The notes under the pieces are model-generated. The model searched no databases. It was not told where the DNA came from and was given only the letters and a program-made list of their open reading frames with translations. Of a DNA stretch of 64,000 nucleotides, positions 26,433 through 47,278 are shown one piece after another. The position numbers were made by a program, and so were the translations under genes. Source of the DNA: Lytechinus variegatus (taxonomy: Eukaryota; Echinodermata; Echinoidea; Temnopleuroida; Toxopneustidae); assembly GCF_018143015.1 (NCBI RefSeq), contig NC_054751.1:28068783-28132782 (forward strand), in the 5' to 3' direction. Each line of letters starts with the position of its first letter. Position 1 is the first letter of the stretch.

Positions 26433-28120
26433 AGTAAGGATGTTGAACTGATATTCTTGAGCAAAATTTCATTTTATATCTGTTTGAATAAAGTGTTTTT
26501 CTGAGTGCGTAATGTTTTGTTTACTATTATGGCACTCAATCTCAGACAAGGATTCGTTTTCAAGAAGATCTGATGTTGAAACATCTATATTAGGCTCTAC
26601 CCAGCGGCGGGGTAAGGGGGGGGGGGCACATTCGACACAATGCCCACTTTTCCTTTCCAAATTCTGTAACTAAGCAAAAGTTATCACTCCATACACGTGA
26701 CCCTTCCCGCTCCTTCAGCATCACACACATTTCTCTAGTCTTTTTCCACATGGGGGGGGTGCCCCTGCATGTATCTGCCATTTTCCCTTTGCTGCATGTC
26801 TTTCTAAGAAGCATGCATGGTCTCGAAGTTGACCACCGTTTCGCATGATAGCAACCTTAATAAGAAGGGATTCGCTTCGGTGATCATCGAGCTCGTGTTT
26901 CGACACCATCGGTAATTCATCCTCTATTGGGTCCTTGAACTCATCATATCATTACAAGACGGAGGATTATAACCGGATGAAACCAAGCCCTGAAAATTAA
27001 TGCCTATTTGTCAACATTGTGTGGGATTGAGAGTACTGTGCCAACATGAGTTGGTTCAATGATCGAATGTTGGAGAATAGATTTATCCAAAGGTCCAGGG
27101 CAATGACATTTCATGTTGTGGCAGAACCAGGGAAGGCGTCAGGGTATTTGATAAAATATAGGGTTGGGGACGACCTAATATAATTGACTGTCATTACTTA
27201 ATAAAGGGCGTGAGGTTTTAATGCCCCCAAACTGCGCATCGATCAAGATAAAGAAGGAGGAAAATTATGGGAAAAGGGTGAAATTTCATTTCTTGAATAT
27301 TATACTTCAAAACCTATCAATGCAAATTTCCACCATCTCGCTTCGGTCGCTCACGGTTTTTTGTATTTTTCCCATATTCTCCCACGTTATGTCCCATCAA
27401 AATTATTACGCCACCCCGTTCTTAATAATCGGTGAAAAGAATCCTTAACCCCTTTGCATTGCTACCATTTCATTAGATTTATACGTTTCACTAATTTCTG
27501 TTCTCGCCCGAGGTGTATATTAGGCTCTGTTTCGGAGTATAAGATTGATTAATCGAATTCTTGAATTGATCTTTCTGAAATAGTTTATATTGTATCGGAG
27601 AGGAATGATAAAGCTTTTCAATAATTTTTGCTCCAGCCGCCACAAAGTGACAGGTATGGTGAATAAATGTTAGAGGTCTAAATACATGAGAGAAGCATCA
27701 CATGTTTTGAGAAAAATTAAGATACACCATTATTCTTAAATCAGATTTAAAAAAACAAATTAAACCATGCCATGAAAGCTTGACCTTTTGGGGGAGAGGG
27801 GATCATTTCATGAAAAGCCATGCAGCTCTCGATCACATGCATTTTCTTTCACAAAATCTGACAAACTAAACACAACTGAAAAAGGGGAAAAGGGGGTATC
27901 ACTCGAGGGGGCAGGGGCAGGAGGTAAGAAGGGGGTTCACGCCTTCACGGCCTGATCCCTACCCATTCGGTCGGCCCTGAGATCAGTACTCCCCCTTTAT
28001 ATTTTCGTACATGTAAGCCGCACTTGGAGAGGAGAATTTGCCTTTTTGGGGTTATTTTATTGTAAAGCGCTGTGAGCATTTTAATGGAACAGCGCATTAA
28101 GAGCTAAATGTATGAAGGCA
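26433..28120. other. intergenic DNA with repeat scraps
   Basis: No gene. A G-run-ended fragment (26602-26770) resembles worn hAT-like ends. 28055-28110 (AAGCGCTGTGAGCATTTTAA and on) resembles a SINE 3' body. Neither can be bounded. Confidence 0.4.
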
Positions 28121-28279
28121 CAGGCGCGGATCCAGGATTTCGTAGGGAGGGGGGCCCAAATTCGACCTGATTTTGGCGCCCCTGTGTACTTTTCGGAAAA
28201 ATGGCGGCCCCTCCCTCCCCAGGCAATCATAAGTGCCTTAAATGCATGTTAAATTATCTTATTTCATAGGCACATGAAT

Positions 28280-30925
28280 CAGGGGCGGATCCAGCTTTCG
28301 CCAATAAAGGGGCCCAATTTTTTTTTTCAGCCATATTTTCCCCGATCGGCCGCTCGAAGATTTTTTTTGGGTTTGTTTCTTTGAAGGGGGTAGTCTTACA
28401 AGTCACATCTTAGCTTTATTCTTTAAATCAACATAAATGTATAATATCATAATCCTTATTTTATAATGCCTGTGCGAAGCGCGTGCAATTTTTTTTTAAA
28501 TTGCATGAATTTTTTCCTAAAATTTGAACTTTTTGAAAAAAAGATGTGCCTGCAATAATTACTGCGAACGCGAAGCGCGAGTAGAAATTTGTGATAAACG
28601 TTTTGAACTGATCGGAAAGGTAGGCCTACCAGTCCTGTTAAAGACTGCATACAGTTAGCCACGAAAACGTGATATATTTCAACAATCAAATAATGCGAGC
28701 GCGAAACGCGAGCTGAAAATTTTTGACATTTCTACATAAAAAATTTTAATTATTTTTTTGTAATCATGAACAGGATAGCTATACAGTATTACTTAACAAT
28801 TGATGCGAGAGCGAAGTCCGGGCGGAAAAATTCTAGATTTGAGATCTCGAATTCTAGAATGCGAGCGCAAAGCGCGAGCAGAAAATGTTTGTATACGTTT
28901 TGAACTGATCGAAAGGTGCCTTTTAAGGACTGCTTGCATTTAGCCCTGAAGACATTACATATTTCAACAATCAAATAATGCGAGCGCGAAGCGCGAGCTG
29001 AAAATTTTTGACATTTCTACATAAAGAATGGAAAACTTTAATACAATATACTTATTACAGAAAAAAGCAATTCGAATCTGTACTGATTCCCAATATTTAT
29101 CACACACAAATCCATTATCCCATAAACTAAAGACTCTAACAGTATTTGACATAATACACTTCAAAGTTTACTACTTATGTTTAAGTACGTAAATAACATG
29201 CTCCCACCTTCATTTCACAATTTTTATACTCTTAATACATCTATTCATTCATACCCTACCCGTTACACTTCAAATTTCCATTTAATCAACCCCAAACTGC
29301 TTATTGCGCAGAGATCCAGACACCATGGTCCAGATATGTGGAACTCTCTACCAGCAGAGTCTGTAAAACAATCTTCGTCTCTTCACTCATTTAAGGCTAA
29401 CGTTAAATCTATGTTATCATCAGAATATTTGAAGTAAAATTTCTGTGTCGTATCCTTTTTATCGTGAATTTATTCCTCCTTCGATTTAGTCATCACCAAT
29501 ATCTTCATCATGACCACCATCATCTCCATGGCCTTCATTATCATCATCATCATCATCATAATCATCATCATCATCAACAACAACAACATCATCATATCAC
29601 CGTCACCCTCAGCTTTATCATCTTCATCTTCACACTATGATATTGCATGAATTCATGTTTCGTATTTGAAAATATATGCCCATTCTGCTTTATAAATGTA
29701 TTAATTCAATTAGTATAAGTTTGGGATTGTCATTTTTTCAAGCAATCTGCTTATGATGACAATCCTTCTCCTGCAAATTGTGAATATCATATAGTTAATA
29801 ATTTTGTCTGGAATTATTTTTTTAGTACTCTTTATTTATGATTCATGCCAAAAATGCTAATATTATGTTTATTATGTTATGAAAAATGTATTATACGAAT
29901 GTTATGGATGCAGAAGAAAACAATAAATCAAATCAAATCAATTGATGCGAGCGCGAAGTGCGAGCGGAAAAATTCTAGATTTGTTTCCTAAATCATGAAA
30001 AAGATGAATAAAATGGAATCTTCCTATATTAATAATGCGAGCGCAAAGTGCGAGCGTAAAAAAAAATCGTGATTTCGACCTTGAACGGGATACTCTATTC
30101 ATGTTTAAATCATGAAAGGGATGAGAAAGGGGATCTTCCTACATTAATAATTCGAGCACAAAGGGCGAGCGGAATTTTTTTATATTGTGATCTAAAACTG
30201 GATAAGTGAATGAAAATGCGCGCGCGTGTTTCAGATTTAGACCTATAATCTAGGCATTCTACATAATCTTTTATCATGAATATAAAAGCGAGCTTAAAAT
30301 ATTTGATATTCCGATCTGATATTTCAAACACTTTATAGGAAACTTGTAAGGTGGATATAAATCGCACTTGATAAAGAGCGGATATGTTTCATTATTACTT
30401 TAATTTTGAGACATAGGACCTTGACATCCTTAGGACATGTTATCATATGAATATGATGACTATATATCTTCCTATTCATCTTGCTAAGCGCGAGATTAAA
30501 AAAAAGGGACAATTTAATTATTAAATTGATATCTTAGTATACATGCATAATGAGGGCGCGGAATCTGATGATATTATGGCCTGAACACTGTACATTCAAG
30601 CACCTTTTTATTATGAATAGGATGCATCATTAATTAGTTGATATATTTTTAACCATAAATGCGAGCGCAAATCGAGAGCCGAAATTTTTGATAAACTGTC
30701 ATGAAAAGGGGATTTTAGGTAGTTTGTTATACAATCAATATTGAGACATACATAACCCGCCAATCAAAAATGCAAGCATAGCGGCGCTAGCTGATGCGTT
30801 TTGATAATCAGACCTGAAAAGGGATATTTAGAAAACTTTATGGAATACATGAAAATAATAGGTACCTGATAAATCAAATTCGCGAACGCACAGCGCAATT
30901 GGAAAATGTTAATGGATCCGCCTAT
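28280..30925. mobile_element. possible inner hAT-like element
   Basis: CAGGGGCGGATCC starts at 28280 and GGATCCGCCTAT ends at 30925. Flanks ACATGAAT and GCATGAAG agree at six of eight positions. It would enclose most of the GCGAGC tandem repeats and the truncated LINE. Ends and duplication are imperfect. Confidence 0.45.
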
Positions 30926-31030
30926 GCATGAAGAAGAGGCAAATGAATAATGGATTTATAATGATGTGTTCATGAATAAATGTAATATCACTTATAAAAA
31001 TAATCAATGCGAGCGGGAAACTCGAGCGAT
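28465..31030. repeat. tandem repeat with GCGAGCGCGAAGCGCGAGC core (first array)
   Basis: About 13 units spaced roughly 90 to 150 bases carry the core, usually as ATAATGCGAGCGCGAAGCGC followed by GAGCTGAAAATTTTTGA. Units drift by point changes. A LINE insertion (29030-29940) interrupts the array and the repeats resume on the far side. Confidence 0.9.
29030..29940 (+). mobile_element. 5'-truncated CR1/L2-group LINE fragment
   Basis: The plus strand encodes the tail of a reverse-transcriptase ORF; 29177-29437 is open and includes HSYPTRYTSNFHL and RHHGPDMWNSLPAES, the C-terminal motif seen in the LINE at 51545. A 3' UTR with ATC repeats and a tail AATAAATCAAATCAAATCA follow. It sits cleanly inside the GCGAGC tandem array. 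The upstream reading frame is broken, so it is dead. Confidence 0.85.
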
Positions 31031-31988
31031 TTGTATTTTAATCATTTGATGCTTTCAATTTCGTTTAATTTCTCATCAGAGTAGGCCCTGCTAGAATTAT
31101 GTGAGCGGGAGCCAGGCGCGGATCCAGGATTTCTTAGGGGGCCCTAATTTCAAGTCAAGTAATAATCGTGCCGAAATATTGACTCCCATTGCCGAATGGG
31201 TAATGTCTAGTTCAGTTAATTCTAACAGAAACCTCTCTTGCATTGTAGGCATTCTTCGTTCCTGTGGGTACTCCCATTTTTTTTCTACTTTTTGTTTCAG
31301 GGTTGAAAAATCTTAGGGGATGACACCCCTGTATCGCCACGTATGAAAACTGGTTGTGCAATAACTAAATTGCATATTCTGCATGAAAGAAAATTAATAT
31401 TTTATTTTGGGTAAGATATTCTTCAAAAGATATAAATTAACATGCTTTTTATTATATAGTTGAGGTAGACTCCGTAGTCAGCACTCAGCATTTACTAATT
31501 GGGAGTGCACTGCCTACTTAGATCTGTGTTTGGATTTATTATATAATCGTTTGTTATTCGCTTGAAATCCATTCAAAACAGTGAGTTGTCTTGTCAATCC
31601 TAATCAACAAACATTGGCTCTTCCGCTCTTGCAAAAATCGTATAAAGTATCAAAAGGTTATGTATCTTATAATCTTGCTCAAATTTTATATACTCCAAAT
31701 AGATTTTCAAAAGAAACAGAATGCGTGTAAACGGTGTATATAAATAGAAAATAAGATACTAAAGATAAATATACTGTAAAAATATTCTTTATTATCAGTG
31801 TCTTTATAAATATGAAAACAATGCTCTTAAGTTCGCATCATTTTGGACGATAAGTTCTAATCTCTCTCTTTCATACGATACTAGCGAAACATGAATTCCA
31901 AGGTCCCATGTATCTTGTATACATCAACTAGTTCAAGATGTAACAATAAATGTAAATGATAGCAATGCAGTTTAGGCCTGAGTAAATA

Positions 31989-34053
31989 CACAACAAAAAA
32001 AGTAAGTCCCCCTAAATCAAATTGCTGTAACTTTTGAACAGAATTATTTTGAGATATGATATTTCGTAGGTGGTTTTCTACACTCATTAAGCAACTCCTG
32101 GTGAAAAATGAGATTGATCGGTTGTGTCATGCATGAGTGATTAAAGATTGAATTGAAAATGACTATTTTTGAAAGTCACAAGAATCGATTTTCAGATTGT
32201 GCATATGCAAAGTTGGGCAAAAATTGTTTTTAGGTGAATTTCATGGTGTTATGCTGTTTTACTATCCATTTAGCCACTCCACACACAATTTTGATATTGT
32301 ATGTTCATGGTTGAGTGAGCACAGTGTATTGCAGGGGCCGCGGGGGGGGGTTGCTGGGGGCTTCAGCCCCTCACTTTTTTCCAAAAGCATGTACACAAAT
32401 GTAAAAATGATCATACGATTGTGATTTTCTGGATGGTCAGCCCCCTTCCCACTTTCAAAACCGTTCCGCGGCCCCTGTATTGTGACGTATCATCATAGGG
32501 GTTTATGGTAGTATCCTCTAAAACTTGTTAGATCATGTTAAAATTTGGAAATGTTGATGTCTTCCCCGATTATAGGCCCCTCCCCCATTTCGAAATTCTG
32601 GATCCACCACTGACAGACTGATTTGTCCATAAATTAAACTGATCATGAGAAATTGTTAGGGAAGTATGCATTTATGCAGTATAAAGAGTATTCATACCTA
32701 AGTTTTCGAATGTGCTCGCTCAACCATGAAAATATTTAAAGTTCGGAACGTGTGTAGTGATAGAAATGATGGATGATAAGACAACAGCAATTAAAGTCAC
32801 ATTTGAAACCGAATTTGCCCCCAATATTCACTTTATTACCCTTTAAAATGAGTCTTTGACATTGAAAATACAAATTTTCCCACTTTGATGCGTGCTCGCT
32901 CATCCATGAATATACAAATCGATTTCATTTTTGCACAGAAAGACTGCCCATAGGTTGATAAACATTACTGCCAAGTGACATTGCTAAAGACAGCCGTGAA
33001 AAAAGTTCCACCATATTGAATAAGGGCTTACTTATTCTTAAATATATGCACCTTTAATGTACACAAGTCTATGAGAGAGGAAGTCAAAATTTTAACAAAT
33101 ATGAAATGAGGGTTTGTGTCATGGACGGTTTTTGTTACTTCTGCCAACAAATATTTCATGAAACTTCGCACATGGCTTCAAGGTAACACTATCTAAAAGC
33201 CGCGCACACCAAAAGAATCATTCGATACGGCACAGAGTGGGGCTAAGGCCTAGAACTTTCTTCTCATTTGCATAATTTTCGAATATTGTGTGCTCACTGA
33301 TGCATTAAACATCGGGATTTTCATAAGAATCAAATCAAATGAACTATGCAAGGAGGTTTGTGAAAGATATACAGAGTTACAAATTGCATTTTTCTAATAA
33401 CGTAAAAACGAGCTGATCACATTCCACATGTTCATTCAAGCGTGAATGTGTAATTAAACGCCTTTGAATCATTGAAGCATGTTAATTGGTCATGAACATA
33501 ACGAAAAAGTTGAGAAAAGATAATTTTCAGTTACCAAAATGAAACAATACATGCCTATGATATTTATAAAATCGTATTTTTGTTTTCAATTAATATTCAT
33601 TGAACCGTGAAACGATGGTTATTGTTGAAGATGCTCTCCCCAAAATAACTGTCATCATATTCTATCATTTTTATTGATAGAAATGTGTACAAAATTCAAT
33701 TATAGTAATTTTGGACTTGTGTTTATTCAACCGTAAAATTTAGTCAAAAAGTTGTATCATCTTTTAGAAAGTACCTTTTACAAGCCTTCTGACCATTTTT
33801 CATGATGAGAATGTGGAATTAGCTCCAATAAAATGGAATCAAAGTAATGATATTTGGCTTGTGACTTTTGAAAAGTGACATTTTTGCCTTCTGACGGTGC
33901 TCACTAAAGCATGACGTAAAATACGTCCATAACATTTACTCAGAGGAAAGCTTATAAAATTACTTATACGCTTATGTAAAAATATATTACAAACTCGCAT
34001 TGGTTCGGAAATTATTGATGTTTGTTTAAGGGGGGACTTACTTTTTTGTTGTG
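31989..34053. mobile_element. 2.1-kb Tc1/mariner-like non-autonomous element, TA target site
   Basis: The inverted ends are CACAACAAAAAAAGTAAGTC with CCCC following, and the matching complement at the right. TA stands on both sides (31987-31988 and 34054-34055). No transposase frame exists. The inside has many diverged copies of a motif like GTGCTCACTCAACCATGAAA. The CAGGGGCC element copy 3 is inserted in it. Confidence 0.75.
32332..32477. mobile_element. CAGGGGCCGCGG element, copy 3 (inverted), TSD TATTG
   Basis: 146 bp, opposite orientation to copies 1 and 2, with internal ATCATACGATTGTGATTTTC. TATTG directly flanks both sides (32327-32331 and 32478-32482). Confidence 0.9.
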
Positions 34054-34307
34054 TATAGTTTCAGTGGAATTCGTTAAAAAATAATAAAACGTGATTTCCC
34101 ACTGTAGGTTGGAAACGAAAAGGTATCGTATCATGAACTGTATATAGCTGTCTTTTACGCATTACTACATGAAACAACAATATAGGAACGATAAAAACCA
34201 TACAGTTATTTCAGTTATTTGAGTATTTGACGATTCGTCAAAAAATAAAACACGCATCCGAAACTTTCACCTTTACAATGAATGTTTCATTTATTCTTTT
34301 ACATATT

Positions 34308-34645
34308 GCACACCAAGAAATAAAGGTTCAAAATTGAACCCCGAAAGGTTGATGCAAAATCAGCACCCTATGGGTTAAAAATTTGAACCCCTGATTTGGG
34401 GTTAAAAAATTGAACCCTGCGGTTGGGTTCATTTTTGCACCCTGCGGGTTCAAAACTGCACCCCTAAATTTCAAATTGAAACCCTAGGGTGCAGTTTTGA
34501 ACCCGCAGGGTGCAAAAATGAACCCCAACCGCAGGGTTCAATTTTTGAACCCCAAATCAGGGGTTCAATTTTTGAACCCATAGGGTGCTGATTTTGCATC
34601 AGCCTTTTGGGGTTCAATTCTAAACCTTTATTTCTTAGTGTGTGC
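34308..34645. mobile_element. 335-bp fold-back element
   Basis: The two arms of about 160 bases are near-complete inverted copies, starting CACACCAAGAAATAAAGGTT. Inside, phrases like GGGTTCAAAA and TGAACCCC repeat many times, so the arms themselves consist of short GGGTTC/GAACCC repeats. Confidence 0.88.
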
Positions 34646-34689
34646 AAATAAACTTCAAAATTTCTGTAAATATCTATCAATATATCCAT

Positions 34690-34865
34690 CAGTGTTGTAG
34701 ACAAGGCTCAAACCTCCAAGGCCAAGGCTTTAATACCCAAGACCAAGGCTTCAATCCCCAAGGCCAAGGCCAAGGCATGGAACCCCAAGGCCTAAAAACC
34801 TCAAGGCCAAGGCATTTAAAAACTTTCAATATATGGAACAATGAGCCAACAACAAGGCGGCAGTT
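34690..34865 (+). repeat. CAAGGC-rich repeat, copy A
   Basis: It begins CAGTGTTGTAGACAAGGCTC and continues as irregular CCAAGG/CAAGGC hexamer repeats. It shares its order of landmarks with copy B at 43041. No right-hand partner end is seen here. Confidence 0.75.
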
Positions 34866-34889
34866 CAAATATCAGTACGGCGCGGCGCC

Positions 34890-36690
34890 CCTACATGTAA
34901 GTCGATCATCAATTTGCCCCCCCCCCGTTCGAACATCAATTCGGCCCCCAGTTCGAACATCATTTTGGCATCCCTTCGAACTCAATTTACCTTCCCTAGT
35001 TCGAATATCATTTCGCCCCCCCCCCCTAGCTCGAGTATCAATTTTGCGCCCCCCTAGTTTGAACATCGATTCGGCGCCCCCTAGTTTGAGTATCAATTTG
35101 GCGCCCCCACTTCGAACATCATTTCGGCGCCCTCCTAGTTCGAATATCAGTTCGGCGCCCCTACATGTAGGTCGATCATCAATGTGCCCCCCCCCGTTCG
35201 AACATTAATTCGGCGCCCAGTTCGAACATCATTTTGACATCCCTTCGAACTCAATTTACCTTCCCTAGTTCGAATATCATTTCGCCCCCCCCCCCCTAGC
35301 TCGAGTATCAATTTTGCGCCCCCCCCCCCTAGTTTGAACATCAATTCGGCGTCCCCTAGTTTGAGTATCAATTTGGCGCCCCCACTTCGAACATCATTTC
35401 GGCGTCCCCCTAGTTCGAACATCAATTCGGTGCTCCCCTAGCATGCCTAGTTTGAGTATCAATTGGCGCCCCCCTAGCTCGAACATCGATTCGGCCCCCC
35501 TCCCCAGTTCGAGTATTATTTTTGCGCCCCCAGTTCGAACATTATTTTAACATCCCTTCGAACTTTATTTCGGCGCCCTCCTAGTTCGAATATCAATTCG
35601 GCGCCCCTACATGTAGGTCGATCATCACTTCGCCCCCCCCCCCCCCGTTCGAACATCAATTTGGCCCCCAGTTCGAACATCATTTTGGCCGCATCCCTTC
35701 GAACATCATTTCGGCGCCCTCCTAGTTCGAATATCGATTCGGCGCCCCTACATGTAGGTCCAACATCAATTTGGCGCCCTTAGTTCGAATACCATTTCGC
35801 CACCCCCCCCCCCTAGCTCGAGTATCAATTTGGCGCCCCCTACATCAACTTGGCGCCCCTACGTCGAACATCAATTCGGCCCCCTCCCTAGTTCGAGTAT
35901 CAATTTGGCGTCCCCACTTCGAACATCATTTCGGCGCCCTCCTAGTTCGAATATCAATTCGGCGCCCCAAAATATAGGTCGATCATCAATTCGCCCCCCC
36001 CCCCCGTTCGAACATAAATTAGGCCCCCAGTTCGAACATCATTTTGGCATCCCTTCGAACTCAATTTGCCTTCCCTAGTTCGAATATCATACCCCCCCTA
36101 GCTCGAGTATCAATTATGCGCCCCCCTAGTTCGAACATCAATTCGGCGACCCCCTAGTTTGAGTATCAATTGGCGCTCCCCTAGCTCGAACATCGATTCG
36201 GCCCCCCTCCCCAGTTCGAGTATTATTTTTGCGCCCCCAGTTCGAACATTATTTTAACATCCCTTCGAACTTTATTTCGGCGCCCTCCTAGTTCGAATAT
36301 CAATTCGGCGCCCCTACATGTAGGTCGATCATCACTTCGCCCCCCCCCCCGTTCGAACATCAATTTGGCCCCCAGTTCGAACATCATTTTGGCCGCATCC
36401 CTTCGAACATCATTTCGGCGCCCTCCTAGTTCGAATATCGATTCGGCGCCCCTACATGTAGGTCCAACATCAATTTGGCGCCCCTAGTTCGAATACCATT
36501 TCGCCACCCCCCCTAGCTCGAGTATCAATCTGGCGCCCCTAGTTCCAACATCAATTTGGCGCCCCTACGTCGAACATCAATTCGCCCCCCCCCCCCCGTT
36601 CAAACATCAATTCTGCCCCCAGTTCGAACAGCATTTTGACATTTCTTCGAACATTATTTCAGCACCCTTTTGGTTCGAACATCATTTTCT
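34890..36690. repeat. 1.8-kb minisatellite of TTCGAA-bearing units with higher-order structure
   Basis: The basic unit of about 28-32 bases is like TAGTTCGAACATCAATTCGG plus CGCCCCC. Blocks of many units recur: about 265-bp spacing (34900/35165) and about 710-bp spacing (35448/36158), so block duplication followed unit amplification. C-runs vary in length. The frames read through it are repeat artefacts. Confidence 0.92.
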
Positions 36691-37665
36691 TTCCCCGTCT
36701 TCCTCTCCCCTTTTCTTCTCTTCTTTCCCCTTTCTCTCTTTCTTTTTTCATCCCTTTTTCTTCCCTCTTCCTCTTTCTTCATTTTTCTCCTTTTCCCCCT
36801 CTTCCTCTCTCTTCCCCCCCCCCCCCCCCCCCCTCTTCCTCTTTTTTTCTCCCCCTCCCCTCCCTTTTCTTCTCTTCCTTCCCCTCTTCCTCTTTCTTTC
36901 CCCTCTTCTTTTTCCCTTTTTTCTTCTTTTCTTTCCCCTCTCTTTTTTTTCTTTCCTCCCTCTTCCCCTTTCTCCTTTTCTTTCCCCTCTTCCTCTTTTT
37001 TCTTCCCCCTCTCCCCCTCCCTTTTCTTCTCTTTCTTTCCCCTTTTCTTCTTTTCCTTTCCCCTTTTCTTCTCTTCCTTTCCCCCTTTTTTCCCTTCTCT
37101 CTCTTTTTTCCTCTTTTTTCTTCCCTCTTCCTCTCTTTCCTTTTTTCTCCTTTTCCTTTCCCCCTCTTCCTCTTTTTTCTTCTCCCTCCCCTCCCTTTTT
37201 CTTCTCTTCCTTCCCCCTCTTCCTCTTTTTTCTCTTTCTTTCCCCTCTTCTTCTCCTTTTTTCTTTCCCTTCTTCTTTTCCCTCTCTTTTTTCTTCTCTT
37301 CTTTCCTCCCTCTCCCTTTCTTTTCTTCTCTTCCTCCTTTTCTTTCCTCTTTTTCCTCTCTCTTTTTTTTCTCCTTTTCCTTTCCCTCTCTTTTTCCTTC
37401 TCTTTCTTTCCCCTTTTTCTCTCCTTCCCTTCCTTCCCCCTCTTTCCTTTTTCTTCTTTTCTTCCCCCTTTCCTCTCTTTTTTTCCCCTCTTCCTCCTTC
37501 CCCTCTTCCTCTCTCTTTTCCCCTCTTCTTTTCCCCTCTCCTCTCTCTCCTTTCCTCTTTTCTTTCCCCCTTTTCCTCTCTTTTTTTTCTTCCCTTCTTC
37601 CTTTCTTCTTTTCTTTCCCCTCTTCCCCTCTTTTTCTCTTTCTTTCCTTCTCTCTTTTTTTTAGC
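36690..37665. repeat. about 1-kb polypyrimidine tract
   Basis: The plus strand is nearly all C and T (TCTTCCTCTTTTCTTTCCCC-type phrases). It links the minisatellite to the right end of the 9.6-kb composite. The 340-365-residue frames here are Phe/Ser/Pro- or Lys/Arg/Glu-only and not genes. Confidence 0.95.
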
Positions 37666-37727
37666 CGAAGGGGGGGGGGGGCCGAGGCCCCCTCGGCCCC
37701 CCCCATGGATCCGCGCCTGTGAAGGCA

Positions 37728-38388
37728 TGCATATCGTGTAATATTGTACAAAGTGTCAGTTCTATAAAAATGACTTTACCCATGCATTCATTATGTAATC
37801 AGATACATTTTTTCATATATTTTTCTATAAAGAAAACATATTCATATCAGGGAATTTATGTGAAATGTGGATCCGCCTAGTGGCGTCATGAAATAAAAAC
37901 TTTGAAAATCCATAAAACTCTCTTGTTCGCAAAATAACCTTCATCAGAATGTTTTAGAACTTTCTTTCGCTTGTTTTTTAAACGACTTGTCGTCAGGGGG
38001 AATGTCTTCAAAAATACTATCAAATCATTTAATATAAAAATTCAAGTTATCAATATTTAAAAAAATCACTATTTTGTCATAGAGCTAAGAATGATAAGAA
38101 TCATAAGAGTGAGTGTATTTCTCTTTTATAAGTTGCAGACTCAACATACGTCACTCTAGAAGTCGGGTTGTTTACATGCTCTGAAACATGAAGCTTCCGA
38201 GAAACTTTACGTCAAGATGATTTCGCGAGGATGGACAAGGTCCTGCGGGGTGTGTGCTGGTTGATAAAGACCATGAAATTCCATTCCTTAGCCATGGTCT
38301 ATATCACTTCAACAACTTATTTTTTTTTATAGACGCTTGTTGATATACCTGAGAGGCGACATGATATATATATATACAATTATATATA

Positions 38389-38448
<60 letters not shown>

Positions 38449-39835
38449 GGGAAGTACAAGGCGACTTGAAAGTAACGTTTTTTCCTCTTAAGAGATATAT
38501 ATTAGAGATATAAAATACATGAATAATAATTGGTAAATGTTCATTTTTTTGTATTTACCTTATTTCAAAACTTTATCAATGCAAACTATCATCCCAGCAA
38601 CAGTTTTATGTGTTCGACGCGTCATCTCCCTATAGCTTCACTCACTTCATTCCCCCATTTTCACTGGTATGCTAAGTACATTGCTTGCATTCTTTCGAAG
38701 TGTGAATTGATTCAAAAACAGTTTAAGTAGATCCTTAATTGACACAACATGGGATAGTACAAAATAAAATATTAACCAGCCACCGACACCGAGACGGTTC
38801 ATGCGTACTTCCATTTTCGTTAACGCCGCGAGATCCGTCACGGCGTGTGCACGCTCTCCGATTTCATTGCGCCGTGCTCGCCGCGATAATTCCAAGCACG
38901 AAAGTCGACTCGACAGGGGGCCGGGGGCGAAGCTCCTCTAACATGTCCAAGTTACACGAATGTCTTACAAAACCTCAGAATCGTATCGAGATGTTTACCA
39001 AGAAAGCTGATATCTCCTTCTGATCGTGCTACTTTCATTTTATCACGACAAGCTGTGTTGATTTCAGTGACCTATTTTCTGTGTAAAGAGTGCATTTGCA
39101 ACACAGGGAAAGTCGAAAAGGATGCACCAATCGAATAGAGAGACACAACTTTGATGACATTCATTCGTGTGAGCTGTGACTTTTCATCAACGGCGATAAA
39201 AACAAGATAGGACCAATTGGTAAGAAAATGCCCTAATTCATGTTATTGTGTTTGTTGATTTCTTTTTCGTATTCTGGTAAACAATTAATTGACAGATAGG
39301 TCGTCCAACAAACATAAATAACCTCTTCTTTAAATTCATTAGTCATCTAGAATTTACGAAAACTCAACCGTGCCCTGTACGATTTTTAAAAGTTTTGTTA
39401 TCTTTAAGGTTAATCGTTCATTCGTTCGCATTCGTGAATCATTGTGACGTGAGGATTGATACCACTTTTGTATTATTCCACGATCTCTGAAGAGCAGGCG
39501 TGGTTCTATATGGGGTTGGAGGGATAAGTTGTTTGGGCTCAAGCTTCTCCGATTATAAAAAAAATGATAAGCAAATGGTATAGTAATAGTCAATCGGAAT
39601 AATTATGTCAGTATAGCAAGTACCTGATTACTAGTACACGTTTACAGATTGGTTCAAAAATAGCTCACTATACGCTCACTCGTAAAGTCTATATTCAATG
39701 TGGTATCGGGCAGCGGCCACTCTTTTTCCCGCAAAAGGTGTCTGAAAGATGTTGGGAGGAAGATAGGGCCTCCATTATGTACGTAGGCTTATACCATTTT
39801 ATATGATTTTTTTAGGCCTGTATATATCTAAGGAA
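37728..39835. other. intergenic DNA with (TA)n at 38376-38440
   Basis: No gene seen. It holds a (TA)n run of about 60 bases and a worn transposon end (GTGGATCCGCCTAGTGGCG at about 37867). Confidence 0.5.
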
Positions 39836-40049
39836 GTGTTGCAAGAAAATAGTTGCAATCAATTGCAAATTTCAGAAGCAAAATTACTTTTGATAGATCA
39901 AATTTAACTAACAGTAAATCGATTGTTATTCGTGTTGATTCAAGAAGCAGGCCATCAATCAATTGCAAATGTGCAATGAAATGCGTGACTTTAAATTGAT
40001 TTGGGGACCTTAAATTGACTTGCGATCTATTGCAAGTTTCTTGCAACAC
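39836..40049. mobile_element. 214-bp MITE with GTGTTGCAAGAAA ends
   Basis: GTGTTGCAAGAAA at the left faces TTTCTTGCAACAC at the right, with inner TTGCAATCAATTGCAA-type repeats. Target duplication not evident. Confidence 0.7.
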
Positions 40050-41299
40050 CCCAGTGACTGATGCTACTTGGAAGAAAAATTCGAAAACAGTCACCTTTTG
40101 ATGGTCCGTAGAACTATATATAGGACTACAAGCAGAATAGAATCAGATTCGGCAGATATGGTCGAAATTACATCTTTTTAGATTATGTTAGGCCTACTTT
40201 GAATGATAGAACACGCAGTAAAGTACTTTTGATTGTTTGCAAAGCAAATATTATTGTAAAGCAAAATATTTTCTCACACGATCCATCAGTTACGTTTTTG
40301 TAAATTGTACAAAAATTGTAGTTTTTAAACCAAAATTCTTTATATTATTACGACCCGATATTTATTTATTGTAATTTTGTAATGAAACTAAGTTTGCACA
40401 AGCCATGGTTTTTTTTTCGGCAAGACACTCCGTGTGATTAACTGCATGGACTTCAGGAGGCTACCGAATTTTGATTCTCAAAGAAAGCATTCATGAAATT
40501 CCTTCTTATACCAGGTATCCATACATCTGTATAGTTACTCAGAAAGTGGCAAACATAATTCAGCATGATTCCACGCTGGGTATGGAACCTTTGACCTTCC
40601 TCAGAATCCTCACTGAGCAGACATGTTGGTCGGAAAAATTCCAATTTTTGAACAACTGTGGGACTCTTAAAGATTCGAAACAGATGGTCATTTTGACCAA
40701 CAAGACATTTGGGCAACAATTATACTAACTGATCTGTTGTTGGTCGATATTTTGACCAGCTAAAGGCCTGGTTGGCTGGTTCCAGTGGCCGATGACACAA
40801 AACATGACACATAAAGGACACAGCGGACGAGCAAAATTTCGGGAGTAGCTCCATCCGTTTTCATCCGCTCCAGATATTGATAAAATGAGCGAAGAATTTG
40901 CGAAAACGTAACGGAATAGTACGGACGTGGCTAGTATTAATTAGCGGGGATATATAAACGGATGTCCATCAGAAACCTAGCGCATGGAAGTGGATGACAG
41001 CTCCGAAGGGGTTACCAGAGGTTTGGAATACTTTATAATATACGAGATGCATATATATGCATAAGACCTGGTCACACCACCAGAATTTTGTGTGAGCGTT
41101 CCTAGAGAGTTAAAAAAAAACCCGCCAAGCCAACACCCGCATGCGCAGAACGTCTCTCTATCAACGCTCACGTCACCGCTAAACCAACGTTCGCTAACGT
41201 TAAACCAACGCTAAAGCAACGCCGTATTGCTTTAGCGTTGGTTAAACGGTGCAAATACGATGTAAATCCGCAACATATACGAGCAACAAACGTCCCATG

Positions 41300-42524
41300 C
41301 AGGGCGTCAAATTATTTTTTCTTCCTCAGGAGCAAGTTTTGAAGCTCAAAGTTTCCTCAATCAGCTGGTAAAAAAAAACCACTTGTGGTTGATTTTTCAT
41401 AATCAACATTATTCTGAAATGTCTACATTTTTGCGCATTGTGGAGAAAGATACAACATGAGTCACATATTCACATGGTTGTACTGTTACAAAGTCACCCC
41501 AATAATACTTGATAAGTTATGTATAGACTTTCAGTACTCACTTTGGCTTTGTACTGTTACAGGTAGTGCATATAATTGAGCATCTAAATGGATGAAAGAT
41601 CCATTCCCAATCAGAAACTATAAGTTTAATGATGGAGTTGGGTCGTTTAGACCTAGAGGTACAATACACATTTCCAGCCTGGACGTTAGGACTTCTTACT
41701 GATACAAACTGACAGTATTTATTCTGTACTGCTTTATGCTTAAATAGACCTTGCAATTTTGTACAGTTGTAATCGTATGTATTGTGTACTGCTTTTTTTT
41801 CAAAATATGAAAAATGAAATTCATGATGATACATGTAATAAATCTCAGCTTTTCAAACACAAATTAGCTTACATGATACATTTGTACATGTCATATAAAC
41901 TAGCTTATGCTTATTATTACATGATACATAATATCGGATATATATATCAGAATCTCAAGTATCAATTGATAGATAAATAACATTGTTTTGCGCCTTTACT
42001 CAATTTCCTCACTCAGACCTGTCCTCACCTCACTGGCACTGTGCAAGTGCAAGGTAAAATATGTATAAAAATTCCAGAATAAGTGTGCTCAGTATTACTG
42101 AATTACTCTGCTACGTTTTGCAAGCTAGTCTAGACGTAACTAAATGAATGAAAATATGGCACTTTTTTCTAAGTCTCACTGGCACTGTGCCAGTGCAAGG
42201 TAAAATATGTATAAAAAAATCCAGATTAAGTGTGCTCAGTATTACTGAATTACTCTGCTACGTTTTGCAAGCTAGTCTAGATGTAACTAAATGAATGAAA
42301 ATATGGCACTTTTTTCTCTTTTCTTCTTTTTTCCTCCTCCTCCTCTTCCCCTTTCTTGCCTTCCTCTTTTCTTTCTTTTCCTCTTCCTCTCCTTCCTTTT
42401 CCTCTTCTTTTTTTCTTCTCCTTTTTCCCATTTTTATTTTTTCTCATGAAGGCACAATTTCCTCAATTTCTTCTGTTGCTTCCTGGGAGCGGTGCTCCCC
42501 GCTCCCGCACAATTTGACATCCTG
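41300..42524. mobile_element. 1.2-kb hAT-like element, exact 8-bp TSD GTCCCATG
   Basis: The ends are CAGGGCGTCAAATT and AATTTGACATCCTG. GTCCCATG flanks both sides (41292-41299 and 42525-42532). It interrupts the left arm of the composite, and joining the flanks restores homology with the right arm at about 46040. Inside is a duplication of about 150 bp (42020/42170) and a CT tract; no ORF. Confidence 0.88.
42020..42315. repeat. two-copy tandem repeat of about 150 bp
   Basis: CTCACTGGCACTGTGC, AAGTGTGCTCAGTATTACTG and GCAAGCTAGTCTAGA appear twice in order, about 150 bases apart and nearly identical. Confidence 0.85.
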
Positions 42525-43699
42525 GTCCCATGTCCGGCCATTATCATCCGTTAAACGTCCGCACTGGCTGTATCCTCTCTGCATCCTGTGGGCATGCACC
42601 GTTTAAATTTACATTAACGTTGTCCTTTACCAAAATAGCAAAGGGTAGGTTCCTAAAACCTAGTCAGAAAATGACGTTGCCCCTGTCAGATTCTAAATAT
42701 ACACATTTTTAACATAACTATCAGCCAAAAATACATTTAATGCTCAACTTGTTTGCATATTCCAAACATGAGAAAGTCCGCATTATATGTTGCATATTGC
42801 TTTTGAAGTTTTGCAGTTAGTCATTACGAAAAAAAAGGTGCACCGCTAAAGCAACGCCTGTGTTTTCGATTTTTTCCCCAGTTTGTGCGTGGTGACGAGC
42901 GTTGTCGAAATTCGGCCCCCTTCTCACTACCGTTCAAGAAACGCTCCAACAAAGTTTTGGCCTTTACATCCTTTCTTTTTCCGTGCTACCAACGATGTGT
43001 ACACGTTCCCTGTACCTTTATTATCTTTCTCCCCCTTTCCGTGTTGTAGTCAAGGCTCAAACCTCCAAGGCCAAGGCCAAGGCCAAGGCTTTAATACCCA
43101 AGGCCAAGGCTTCAATAACCAAGGCTGAGGCCAAGGCATGGAAACCCAAGGCCAAGGCCAAGGCCTGAAAACCTCAAGGCCAAGGCCAAGGCATTTCAAT
43201 TGTACAATACATGGAAAAAAAATTAGACAACAATGCTTAGGCGGCATACATGACACACAGGACCAATGTATAAAAGGTGTGAGCGAGATTCACATTGCAA
43301 TAATTATTATTACCAAGGTGATCTGATCCTGGCATGCCCATTCTCAACATATGTCTTTCTCCTCTACCTGGTACAGGGGAGGCAGAATGTAATTTTTTTT
43401 TTTTGGGGGGGAGGTCAAAGCCAAAAATGCACTTACAATATAAGTCAAAATGAGAATTTTGGTGCAGTTCAGCAAAGCTTTTATAAGGGATTTCTAATTG
43501 ATAAGACAGATATTTTGATTTAGGCTTTAATTTCCCGCTATAGAAAGCATAGCGAGCAAGTGGTTTTGAAAAAAAAAATCAATTTTGAAGTTGTAAAACT
43601 TGATTTTGGGTCAATTATGGTGCTAATCACTGTTAAAAGGGCATCCTTGCGAGATGTTGTAATAAGATGTAATAAGAAATGAAATTTAAATATTTTGAG

Positions 43700-44000
43700 C
43701 TGTTTTTGTAATCATGAAAAAGGTGTGCATCTTACTAAACAAATTAACGCGAGCACAAAACACAAGCTGAAATTTTTACTGACCAGAAAAGGAAGCTGTT
43801 CTGGACTGCATTTAGTGACTCATAAATAGGATACATAACTTACCAATCAAATAATGCGAGCGCAAAGTGCGAGCTCAAAATTTGTACTATTTCGACATAA
43901 AAACTAGACATTCTAAGCATTTTTTTTTGTGTAAATTGAATGCGAACCTTACTTAACAATAATTTATGCAAGCACAATCCAAAATTTGTTGGTTTTGAAA
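43700..44000. repeat. GCGAGC-type tandem repeat, worn array
   Basis: At least two or three units (43745, 43855, about 43965) carry the core in degraded form with the AGCTCAAAATTT continuation. Confidence 0.7.
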
Positions 44001-44308
44001 CCTACAATTTTGCTCTGTATGCCATGCTTGGCCCCTCAAATTTTTGGCTCATCATGCCATTGATGCCATAGAGCATTTGGAAATGACGAAATTGAAGTTT
44101 GTGTTCAAGTTTACCGAATCTTTTCAGAATATCATTAAGACTTAAAACATTCTTGTTGGTCAAAGAAAATAATACAAGGAAAACCTAATGGAATAGAAAT
44201 CAACCTTGTTATCATTCTTTAGAGTAAACTATTTTTAAAGTATGAAAATTGTTGTCAAAATTGCAGTCAGATCTGTCAGAATTATTCCTGTCATAAAATC
44301 AGTATAAT

Positions 44309-45495
44309 CAGTGGCGTACCGTGGGTCACGGCATTGGGGGGCACCAGCAAAAACTTGGAACTGCCTAGTGAGCTCGCAAAGCGCGCCCAGTTGCCAGGTA
44401 TACTGACCTAATAGAGATATTTTTATAAGGACAGTGCCAATAAACGGACATGTATCTCACTAGTCAAATAATGCGAGCGCGAAGCGCGAGCTTAAAATTT
44501 TTGATATTCAAACCTAAAAAGGGACATTACAATCAATCTTTTGTAATCATGATACGTACCTGTCTCGCTAAATAATGCGAGCGCGAAGCGCGAACTGAAA
44601 TTTTTGTAAATATTGACCCCAAACAGGAAGATTTTAAGGACTATATTTTAGGAATCTTTTATCTATTAAGATTATACACATCTCACCATAGTCATTTAAT
44701 GGGAGTGCCAATAAGCGCTTGCTGATTTTGTTAGAATTACATCTAAACATGCACATAATGCACTTGTAATCATGAGTAACATACCCATCTCACTAATCAA
44801 ATCTTGCGAGCGCAAAGCGCGAGCTGAAAATTTAGGAAATTCAGACCTGAAGAGTGGCATTTTAAGGCTTGTTTGTAGGAATTCAAGAACACCTTACGTA
44901 GTTCACTAACCAAATGATGCAAGCGCGAAGCGCGAGCTGAAAATTTTTGATATTCAGATCAGAAAACAGAAAAAGAGACATTTTAAGGACTCATTCTAGG
45001 AATTGATGGAGAGCAGACATCTTTCACCAATCCACTACTGCGAACGTAAGCACGGACAGGAAATGTTTTATATTAAGACCTTAAAATGGGACAATCACTT
45101 AAAGTATTCATGAAAAAGAAGCATACTATTGTTCATGTAAAAGAATAACTCAAAGTGCGAGGAAATATATTTGGTAGTTTGGTGTATATTGACTTGAAAA
45201 CGGGAGGTTTTAGTATAACAAGATTATATATCTCGGTAAACAGACAATGGGAGCACCAGGAACAATGAAGACATATATGCCCTGAGCCAATTATGTTTCA
45301 TTTATATGAAAAAAATGTTTCTTATGTAATGTAACATAACATAATTATGACATTATAATGAACAATAACATTAATGTCTTCTTTCCCACTACGTTTCTCT
45401 TCCTTTCTCCCTCTTTTCCTCCTTTTTTTAGTCAGCCGATAGGGGGGGGCATGGGGGCATGTGCCCCCATGCCCCCCCCTGTAATTACGCCACTG
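44309..45495. mobile_element. 1.2-kb hAT-like element, 8-bp TSD (7/8)
   Basis: The ends are CAGTGGCGTACC and TTACGCCACTG. Flanks AGTATAAT (44301-44308) and ACTATAAT (45496-45503) differ at one base. The inside is mostly the GCGAGC tandem repeat (44370-45060), with a GGGGGGGCATGGGGGCATG inverted stretch near the right end. No transposase. Confidence 0.85.
44360..45070. repeat. GCGAGCGCGAAGCGCGAGC tandem repeat (second array)
   Basis: Units at about 44365, 44470, 44577, 44808, 44918 and 45047 are spaced roughly 105-230 bases and share ATCTCACTAATCAAATAATG before the core and GAGCTGAAAATTT after it. Confidence 0.88.
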
Positions 45496-46398
45496 ACTAT
45501 AATCCTAATCATAATTCTTATCATTATTATTGATATTATCATTATCCTTATTAGTCATGATTACATCATATTACCAATAAATAATATTAATTTTCATCAT
45601 TTCTCTTTGTTACATAATTATGTGATGATAATTGCAATTGATGGCACTGCTAAGTACACTTACTGCTTCTGCTGCGGCTGACTGGTAGTATTTAGTGTCA
45701 TTAGATGTACAGAACAATTGAAACATTCATAATTACTTTTATAAAACAAATGAAAGTACAAAAATACAAAATGCCTTGAAAAAGCCTTGAAAATGCCTTG
45801 AAATTTCAAGGCTCAAAATCCTCAAGGCCCTCTCAAGGCCAAGGCTTGAATGTTCAAGGCCAAGGCTTTGAAAAAATAGGCCTTAAGGCGCCTTAAGGCC
45901 AAGGCCGAGCATCAAGGCACTACAACACTGCGGGCCCCTTTCCGCTCGATCTTCAGCTGCTGTGGATGTGAGTTGCGAGGATGCCCACAGGATGCAGAGA
46001 GTATACAGCCTGTTTAACGAATGATGACGGCCGGACATGGGACGTTTGATGCTCGTATATGTTGCGGATTTACATCGTACACGGCGGAAAGTTCGTCCGT
46101 TCTAAAATTTTGTGCAGCTTAAAAAAAATTTTGCGAGGGTGAAATCACAGTGGATGAATGCTCGATGGATAGAGCGTATGAAACACGCATGTAATGAGTA
46201 CACAACGGATGCATAGAATTTTCCAACCGATGGCAAGATTTTTTTCTACGTTTACATCCCATTTGCATCCGCAAGTGCAGTGGGACCGGGCCTTAACTAG
46301 ATTGTCAAAATTTCGACGAGTACTTTGTAAAAATTAAGAGTTTACCCATTTTGTAGCTAAATTTGATCAGCAAATTCATCAAACAGTCCCCCCCCCCC

Positions 46399-47278
46399 CC
46401 GGGGCGTCGATCCATTTTTCAGATTAGGGGGCATATCATGAATAAACGTTCCAAAGGCGCTCGATCACACAAAACAAACAAACTCACCCACCCCACACAC
46501 ACATAGGCCTACATATATATACATATGTGGGTGTGTGTGTGTGTATATGACTCATGAGAAAGAGACACATATCTCATGGAAAAAATTAATGCGAGCGCGA
46601 AGCACGAGCTGAAATTTTTTAGTATACTCACCTGAAAACAGTACCTGTTTAGGACTGTTTGTAGTAACTCATGAGGAGAATACATATCTCACTAAACAGA
46701 TAATGCGAGTGCCGAGAGCGAGCTGAAACTTCTTTATATTCTGACCTGAAATCTTGATATTCTAAGCTTTTTTGGTACCAATTATGATTAAGATGGGTAT
46801 CTAAAAGAACAATAGATCGAGCGCAAAGTGCGAGCTCAAAATTTTGATATTTCGATCTGAAAAAAACCTGACAGTTTAGTATGGACGTTTTTAATAAAGA
46901 ACAAGATATGTATCCAACAAGAGATTATTGCAAATGGAAGCGGGAGTTCTCTTGAGGTTTAGAACTGAAAACGAGACATTCTATTCACCTATTTAATCAT
47001 GAAAAGTATGGGTTTTTGCTACAGAAATGATGCGAGCGCGAAGCGCGAGCTGAAACTTTTTATATTCCAATCTGAAAAGCGGACATTTTGAGCACGATTT
47101 GAAAAAGAACGAGTTGTGAATCTCAATCTCGCTAGCCGATTTCTGTGTGACATTATACAATCTTATTTTATTTTCGCACATGCGGAATCATGGGGGGCCA
47201 AAATAATATGTTTGCCTCCACAATATTTTCATTGGTGGGGCGATCGCCCCCCTGCCCCCCCCCGGATTGACGCCTCTG
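46399..47278. mobile_element. 0.9-kb hAT-like element inserted in a C run
   Basis: The ends CCGGGGCGTCGATCC and GGATTGACGCCTCTG pair with a few mismatches. At least eight C on each side could be the target duplication, though a C run cannot prove it. Inside are four units of the GCGAGC repeat (about 46590, 46702, 46817, 47030). Confidence 0.65.

What the first reader, a model, noticed from the sequence alone, without database searches (positions are those of the whole stretch)
28121..47278. One internal tandem repeat shared by transposons with different ends
The core GCGAGCGCGAAGCGCGAGC with its AATCAAATAATG and GAGCTGAAAATTTTTGA surroundings forms arrays in at least three elements (28121-37719, 44309-45495, 46399-47278), plus a worn array at 43700-44000. 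Their terminal sequences differ (CAGGCGCGGATCC, CAGTGGCGTACC, CCGGGGCGTCGATCC). Either the array is a transposase- or host-protein-binding module swapped between hAT families, or a satellite that elements capture and spread.
Basis: partly seen in the sequence, partly recalled or inferred. Interest (0 to 1): 0.75.

Follow-up and report, generated by a model that had tools for sequence, protein, structure and literature searches.

The report
Repeat module shared across transposon families
One short repeated DNA block lies inside several kinds of small jumping gene that have different ends, and in at least two cases the inside of one kind has ended up between the ends of another, so these parasites seem to trade an internal part.

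Summary
The 19-bp core occurs 16 times in the window (0 in 100 shuffles) and 31,052 times genome-wide at <=1 mismatch; a composition-matched scramble gives 0. Cores sit in ~110-bp units inside non-autonomous, hAT-like elements with short TIRs and target duplications. The window needs re-reading: the array of 28121-37719 belongs to a nested guest (28280-30926), and the "worn" array at 43.7-44.0 kb to an outer element (43039-45930) invaded by 44309-45495.

Seven end-types carry the array. Two are chimeras. F6b (ends like F6/F7; 5-bp duplications in 9 of 11 copies) has an interior 79-87% identical to F3 (other ends, 8 bp). F1 (ends closest to F2, 8 bp) has the interior of F7 (5-6 bp). Composites that amplified as units, and one guest that lost its right flank, suggest the route: nesting, then loss of the guest's ends. 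The core consensus is identical in the six types with enough units while spacers diverge, so the core is probably a protein-binding site kept in source copies; that function is inferred. No hAT domain was found among 30 of 116 frames scanned, and autonomous partners could not be read. Verdict: new variant of a known kind.

The parts
28121..37719 (+). Outer element F5, ends CAGGCGCGGATCCA / TGGATCCGCGCCTG, 8-bp target duplication TGAAGGCA (28113-28120 and 37720-37727)
28280..30926 (+). Guest element F7 nested in F5; holds the array. About 360 bp next to its right end are missing relative to L009 and L035, leaving the last ~14 bp
28468..30679 (+). Core array of the guest F7 (10 cores with <=4 mismatches), interrupted between 28998 and 29947 by other sequence that reads like a LINE tail (reading only)
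31009..31027 (+). Worn core unit of the host F5, between the guest's right end and a second F5-type left end at 31113
43039..45930 (+). Outer element F8, CCGTGTTGTAGTC...GCACTACAACACTG, 94-96% identical to L022 3246-6223, which has duplication GTAGATTA; no duplication is left around the window copy
43740..43960 (+). Worn core array belonging to F8; best core 43856-43874
44309..45495 (+). Element F2 nested in F8, ends CAGTGGCGTACCG / ...TTACGCCACTG, duplication AGTATAAT/ACTATAAT; in the top 40 of 5,333 candidates, 36 of 40 are full length (itself included), 94-100% identical
44473..44937 (+). Core array of F2: 44473, 44577, 44806, 44919
46399..47278 (+). Element F3, ends C(C/A)GGGGCGTCGATCC / GGATTGACGCCTCTG; in the top 40 of 4,325 candidates, 23 of 40 are full length to within a few bases (itself included); the 39 others are 80-88% identical to this copy
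46591..47050 (+). Core array of F3: 46591, 46705 (worn), 46817, 47032

Best explanation
A tandem array built on one 19-bp CpG-rich core is an interior part carried by at least seven end-types of non-autonomous, hAT-like MITE-sized elements. The array-bearing interior has moved between end-types at least twice. Most likely route: an array element inserts into another element (shown), the composite amplifies as a unit under the host's ends (shown), then internal deletions remove the guest's own ends (one one-sided case shown in the window, the rest inferred), leaving host ends around a guest interior, which then spreads as a new family (that F6b and F1 are multi-copy families is shown; how they arose is inferred). 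The core most likely binds a transposase or host protein that helps amplification (inferred), because the core consensus stays the same between lineages while spacers diverge.
For: Ends versus interiors (15 of the 25 library elements plus F8; cores masked, 60 bp trimmed at each end): interior similarity is 690-729 bits for F1-F7 and 564 for F3-F6b; every other pair is 114 or less. End similarity (matches in the first 22 / last 22 bp): F1-F2 15/21 against F1-F7 13/14; F6b-F6 18/17 and F6b-F7 17/19 against F6b-F3 10/13. F6b is a mobile family: 38 of 40 scored copies (the query included) run end to end to within one base at 91-100%. Its duplication is 5 bp in 8 of 10 further copies plus L033. F3 copies are more diverged (39 others 80-88% to the window copy), so F6b probably received its interior from F3. 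No F3 end was seen in F6b on reading the alignment; the left break lies in a CA/TA microsatellite. Nesting is frequent: F2 in F4 (own duplication TATGTCCA), F2 in F8, F7 in F5 and F7 in an F4-like element, F3 in another element. Composites amplified: in the two top-40 lists seven F8 copies end exactly where an F2 copy begins and an eighth lies 14 bases off; both junctions of F7 in F5 recur in the window, L009, L011 and L035, and one junction in L015, L019 and L036; all 16 further F7 copies whose flanks were read lie at one site. The window guest F7 lost ~360 bp next to its right end. The core consensus is 19 of 19 identical in all seven labels tested; between families core 0.80-0.94 versus outside 0.65-0.80.
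Against: Within families the core is not consistently better kept: 0.904 versus 0.889 overall, higher in F2 (0.921/0.861) and F3+F6b (0.943/0.865), lower in F1 (0.956/0.970), F6 (0.902/0.909) and F7 (0.850/0.878), so inserted copies do not look protected. Units were admitted only with <=5 core mismatches, which favours the core, and cores help to seed the alignments. The labels are not independent: F4's units are the nested F2, and F1/F7 and F3/F6b share interiors, leaving about four interior lineages; F8 was not in that test and F5's one worn unit differs at three positions. F1's left end is almost as close to F3 (14 of 22) as to F2 (15 of 22), so its grouping with F2 rests on the right end. 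F7's duplication length rests on three sites (GGGGG, GGGACA, CATGAA). One F6b copy has a perfect 8-bp duplication and one has none, and two F6 copies in L020 have none. F5 (8 bp) and the right end of F6 (5 bp) are identical over 17 bp, which weakens the idea of unrelated end-types. Copy lists show only the best 40 of thousands of candidates, so ages are rough. No autonomous element was read.
Confidence: 0.6

Rival explanations
1. Common descent only: all these elements come from one ancestral array-bearing element, and its ends drifted apart; the array was never exchanged.
For: Most ends share a CA..GGCG-like start. Interiors share a polarity: with the core on +, the right side is richer in pyrimidines than the left in 23 of 25 library elements. 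F6 and F7 share both ends and array and probably do descend together. The near one-way orientation of matches is no evidence, since elements were turned by their cores.
Against: Interiors and ends group differently for F1/F2/F7 and F3/F6b/F6, and both conflicts cross the 8-bp and 5-bp classes.
Confidence: 0.15
2. Pure passenger: the array is a recombination-prone minisatellite with no function; it spreads by nesting and gap-repair template switching, and the core looks conserved only because of shared ancestry and selection of units by core.
For: No consistent extra core conservation within families. Arrays expand locally: one F7 copy holds three extra 160-bp blocks at 100% identity, and L009 shows a 332-bp higher-order spacing. 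Single-strand folding of four sequences is not unusual (z -1.21 to 0.86).
Against: The core has five CpGs, and about half of the core changes seen (152 of 307) are CpG transitions, yet the core consensus is unchanged in about four interior lineages while spacers have diverged.
Confidence: 0.25
3. A free genomic satellite captured repeatedly by elements.
For: 107 of 272 cores (<=4 mismatches) in the window and 28 loci lay outside the 25 library elements; some of these lie in other delimited elements (F5 of L028, F8).
Against: 22 of 25 such stretches still match a library element with cores masked (some matches short and weak, 3 had none), and no array larger than an element was seen. Only 28 loci from one end of one contig were read, all chosen for an exact core.
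Confidence: 0.05

Closest known systems
Tetris foldback elements of Drosophila virilis and DAIBAM (PMC4079207; abstract and passages seen)
   Same: Non-autonomous, modular DNA transposon with internal ~220-bp tandem repeats; shares end portions with another element; many rearranged forms.
   Different: Tetris repeats lie within the TIRs; here the array is internal, in one orientation, between short TIRs. Tetris and DAIBAM share ends; here interiors are shared under different ends.
Galileo with internal tandem repeats holding extra THAP transposase-binding sites (seen only as described in a passage of PMC4079207)
   Same: Offers the working model: tandem internal repeats as extra binding sites that may raise transposition.
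   Different: Galileo repeats lie in its TIRs and bind its own transposase; here the same core occurs in elements of two duplication lengths and no binding protein is known.
MITEs and Helitron-like DINEs with internal satellite repeats, such as miDNA4 and DINE central tandem repeats (PMC9659126; passages and part of its table seen)
   Same: Tandem repeats born inside, or riding on, a non-autonomous element.
   Different: The passages seen describe repeats within one element or family; here one repeat is shared by several end-types with evidence of exchange.
TU elements of sea urchin, modular transposons with 8-bp duplications (recalled; a passage of PMC4079207 cites a 1983 report for sea urchin foldbacks)
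   Same: Heterogeneous, modular elements with tandem repeats and 8-bp duplications, as recalled.
   Different: As recalled their tandem repeats form the inverted ends; no TU sequence was compared here.

Membership tests
hAT superfamily (F1, F2, F3, F5, F8) | 8-bp target site duplication | tested here: met
   15 rows of these types: 8 of 8 in 10 (L013, L014, L030, L021, L022, L024, L027, window F5, L028, F8 of L022); 7 of 8 in 3 (L018, window F2, L017); window F3 is a C-run; window F8 has none. Nested F2 of L026 TATGTCCA.
hAT superfamily (F6, F6b, F7) | 8-bp target site duplication | tested here: not met
   F6 5 bp in 4 of 6 copies, none in 2; F6b 5 bp in 9 of 11, 8 bp in 1, none in 1; F7 5-6 bp at three sites. 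That some hAT groups make 5-bp duplications is recalled only.
hAT superfamily | Short TIRs beginning CA and ending TG | tested here: met
   Representatives of all seven array end-types and F5; the window copies of F3 and F8 begin CC.
hAT superfamily | Mobilised by a hAT transposase with matching ends | tested here: inconclusive
No hAT domain among 30 of the 116 open frames.
MITE | Short, non-coding, high copy number, with TIRs and target duplications | tested here: met
   About 0.8-1.8 kb for F1, F2, F3, F6, F6b (one F1 copy, L018, 3.6 kb). Full-length in the top lists: F6b 38 of 40, F2 36 of 40, F6 37 of 40, F3 23 of 40, F1 30 of 49 listed matches.
Satellite DNA | Long head-to-tail arrays independent of transposons | tested here: not met
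   None seen in the window and 28 loci; a small, biased sample.
Foldback elements | Long inverted ends built of tandem repeats | tested here: not met
   TIRs are short; cores inside each delimited element are on one strand only.
Helitron with central tandem repeats | No target duplication, no TIRs | tested here: not met
   TIRs and exact duplications present.

The most novel reading that the evidence does not exclude
The core array is a selfish, tradeable amplification module: a host-factor or shared-transposase binding array that raises the success of any short-TIR element that acquires it. It would have passed between elements mobilised by different transposases (8-bp and 5-bp duplications) by nesting followed by loss of the guest's ends.
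Probability: 0.3. Interest if true: 0.8.

Novelty: new variant of a known kind. Interest (0 to 1): 0.55.

Why it matters
If the module is functional, the unit of selection among small DNA transposons would be an internal part that changes partners and not a whole element. That would help explain why unrelated-looking MITE families in one genome amplify in parallel, and it gives natural chimeras (F3/F6b, F1/F7) in which ends and interior can be tested apart. Even if neutral, the nested composites show a concrete way in which ends and interiors of transposons become reshuffled, which matters for classifying families by their ends alone.

Tried and rejected
F4 (L026) first looked like a chimera with F2 (about 1 kb at 77-80%); closer reading showed a complete nested F2 with its own ends and duplication TATGTCCA, so it was dropped as evidence for exchange.

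A special single-strand structure (stable GCGAAGC mini-hairpin, recalled) was considered: folding of four sequences is no better than shuffles, and the two most changed core positions (G to A at position 9, 47 of 234 units; C to T at position 13, 28 of 234) fall in that hairpin. Rejected.

Consistent core conservation within families was expected and not found. F7 flanks were meant to give independent duplication sites, but all 16 further copies read lie at one site. A THAP or BED site fit was not tested; I recall no match to a THAP1 motif. A search of the held library for the core and three sub-words found one paper, by title unrelated, holding one sub-word (listing only). Searches for TU elements and for hAT/MITE arrays or sea urchin transposons (listings, of which two papers were opened for passages) showed nothing on this repeat; subscription papers and Repbase are not covered. 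The host species was not identified; assembly size and recall suggest a sea urchin, untested.
Full report
Observation. The core GCGAGCGCGAAGCGCGAGC is in the window 16 times with at most three mismatches, all on the + strand, against none in 100 shuffles. The genome (869.6 Mb, 33 contigs, unnamed) has 31,052 matches with at most one mismatch; a scramble with the same letters and CpG number has none. The tool's backwards control gave 18,614 and cannot be used, because the core is nearly a mirror repeat.

Sample. All were chosen for an exact core, so proportions below apply to this sample. Scripts located cores and searched for inverted ends with target duplications. I label end-types F1 to F8; these labels are mine. 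The element library used for comparisons holds 25 elements.

End-types (duplications). F1 CAGTGGCGTAGCTA (L013, L014, L030 exact 8 bp; L018 7 of 8). F2 CAGTGGCGTACCG / CAGTGGCGTAACTA (L021, L022, L024 exact; window 44309-45495 7 of 8). F3 CAGGGGCGTCGATCC / CAGAGGCGTCGATCC (L027 exact, L017 7 of 8, window 46399-47278 in a C-run). F5 CAGGCGCGGATCCA (window 28121-37719 and L028, exact 8). F6 CAGGGGCGGATCCAGCTT / CAGGCGCGGATCCAGGAG: exact 5 bp in L023, L025, L029, L031, none in the two adjacent copies of L020. F6b CATAGGCGGATCCAGCTT (L033, 5 bp). F7 CAGGGGCGGATCCAGYCT / CATAGGCGGATCC, duplication 5-6 bp at three sites. F8 CAGTGTTGTAGTC (L022, exact 8; none around the window copy). F4 CACTGGCGTAAATCC has the array only through guests.

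The window re-read. 28121-37719 is F5 with F7 nested at 28280-30926. Both junctions of this insertion recur in L009, L011 and L035, and one junction in L015, L019 and L036, so the composite multiplied after one insertion. In the window, about 360 bp next to the guest's right end are missing relative to L009 and L035. 43039-45930 is F8, with its own worn array and F2 nested at 44309-45495; L022 has the same arrangement at 94-96% identity. In the two top-40 lists, seven F8 copies end exactly where an F2 copy begins and an eighth lies 14 bases off.

Exchange. With cores masked and 60 bp trimmed from each end, interiors match strongly only for F1-F7 (690-729 bits) and F3-F6b (564); all other pairs score 114 or less. 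The ends group otherwise: F6b with F6 and F7 (18/17 and 17/19 of 22, against 10/13 with F3), and F1 with F2 (15/21, against 13/14 with F7), though F1's left end is almost as close to F3's (14). F6b's interior (about element 175-840) is 79-87% identical to F3 over 654-674 bp, and I saw no F3 end in it. F6b is mobile: 38 of 40 scored copies, of 4,590 candidates, cover it end to end to within one base at 91-100%, the query included. Of ten further copies whose flanks I read, eight have an exact 5-bp duplication, one an exact 8-bp duplication and one none. F3 copies are more diverged (39 others at 80-88% to the window copy) than F6b copies, so F3 is the likely donor; both lists are only the best 40. 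F1 and F7 share pre-array, array, post-array and pyrimidine tract at 63-72% but not ends. F1 is a multi-copy family (30 of 49 listed matches cover it to within three bases; apart from the query 89-95%), as is F6 (37 of 40 full length; apart from the query 89-94%).

Core. The majority letters of the core are the same 19 in all seven labels tested. These are not seven independent cases: F4's units are nested F2, and F1/F7 and F3/F6b share interiors, which leaves about four lineages. F8 was not in that test, and F5's single worn unit differs at three positions. Between families the core is 0.80-0.94 identical and the rest 0.65-0.80 in alignments of at least 150 bp. Within families the result is mixed: 0.904 versus 0.889 overall, higher in F2 and F3+F6b, lower in F1, F6 and F7. 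About half of the core changes (152 of 307) are CpG transitions (counted). I read this as constraint on source copies, not on inserted copies; both measures lean towards the core, because units were chosen by it. Nearest units in other elements are in the same family, except that all 4 F6b and 4 of 9 F3 units pair with each other's family, all 4 F4 units with F2, 2 of 87 F7 units with F1 and 1 of 20 F2 units with F6b. So exchange is occasional, and most arrays have evolved with their own family.

Mechanism. Shown: nesting, amplification of composites, loss of one guest flank, two families whose ends and interiors conflict. Inferred: that chimeras arose by nesting followed by loss of the guest's ends (the left break of F6b in a CA/TA microsatellite would also fit template switching during gap repair); that the core binds a protein; that the array helps amplification. 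A passage of PMC4079207 describes internal repeats of Galileo as extra THAP transposase-binding sites that may raise transposition, which is the closest working model.

Limits. No hAT domain was found among 30 of 116 open frames scanned; the genome has at least 63 hAT dimerisation-domain matches whose surroundings could not be read. Membership in hAT therefore rests on ends and duplications only, and the 5-bp families fail the 8-bp criterion.

Noticed in passing
L033 5049-5973: The right half of F6b carries a second, unrelated tandem array with GGCGCCGAT-type units (self-matches at 71-76%).
   Followed up: no
window 34883-37660: F5 also holds a ~28-bp array (GTTCGAACATCAATTCGGCGCCCC type, 34.9-36.6 kb) and then about 950 bp of pyrimidine-rich DNA.
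   Followed up: no
C11:7470767-7472547 (flanks L049, L050): One F6b copy is flanked by a perfect 8-bp duplication, GATGAGTA, where most of its sisters have 5 bp.
   Followed up: no
C1:88215769-88216248: Three extra 160-bp blocks at 100% identity inside an F7 array: a recent local expansion.
   Followed up: no
window 51548-54505 (-): Open frame of 986 aa with endonuclease and reverse transcriptase domains, probably a LINE.
   Followed up: partly
window 34371-34640: Imperfect inverted repeat made of TTGAACCC-type motifs (reading; two short tandem arrays).
   Followed up: no
L031 7260-8279 (+): 340-aa frame with a DDE_Tnp_4 transposase domain, about 2.4 kb from an F6 element.
   Followed up: no
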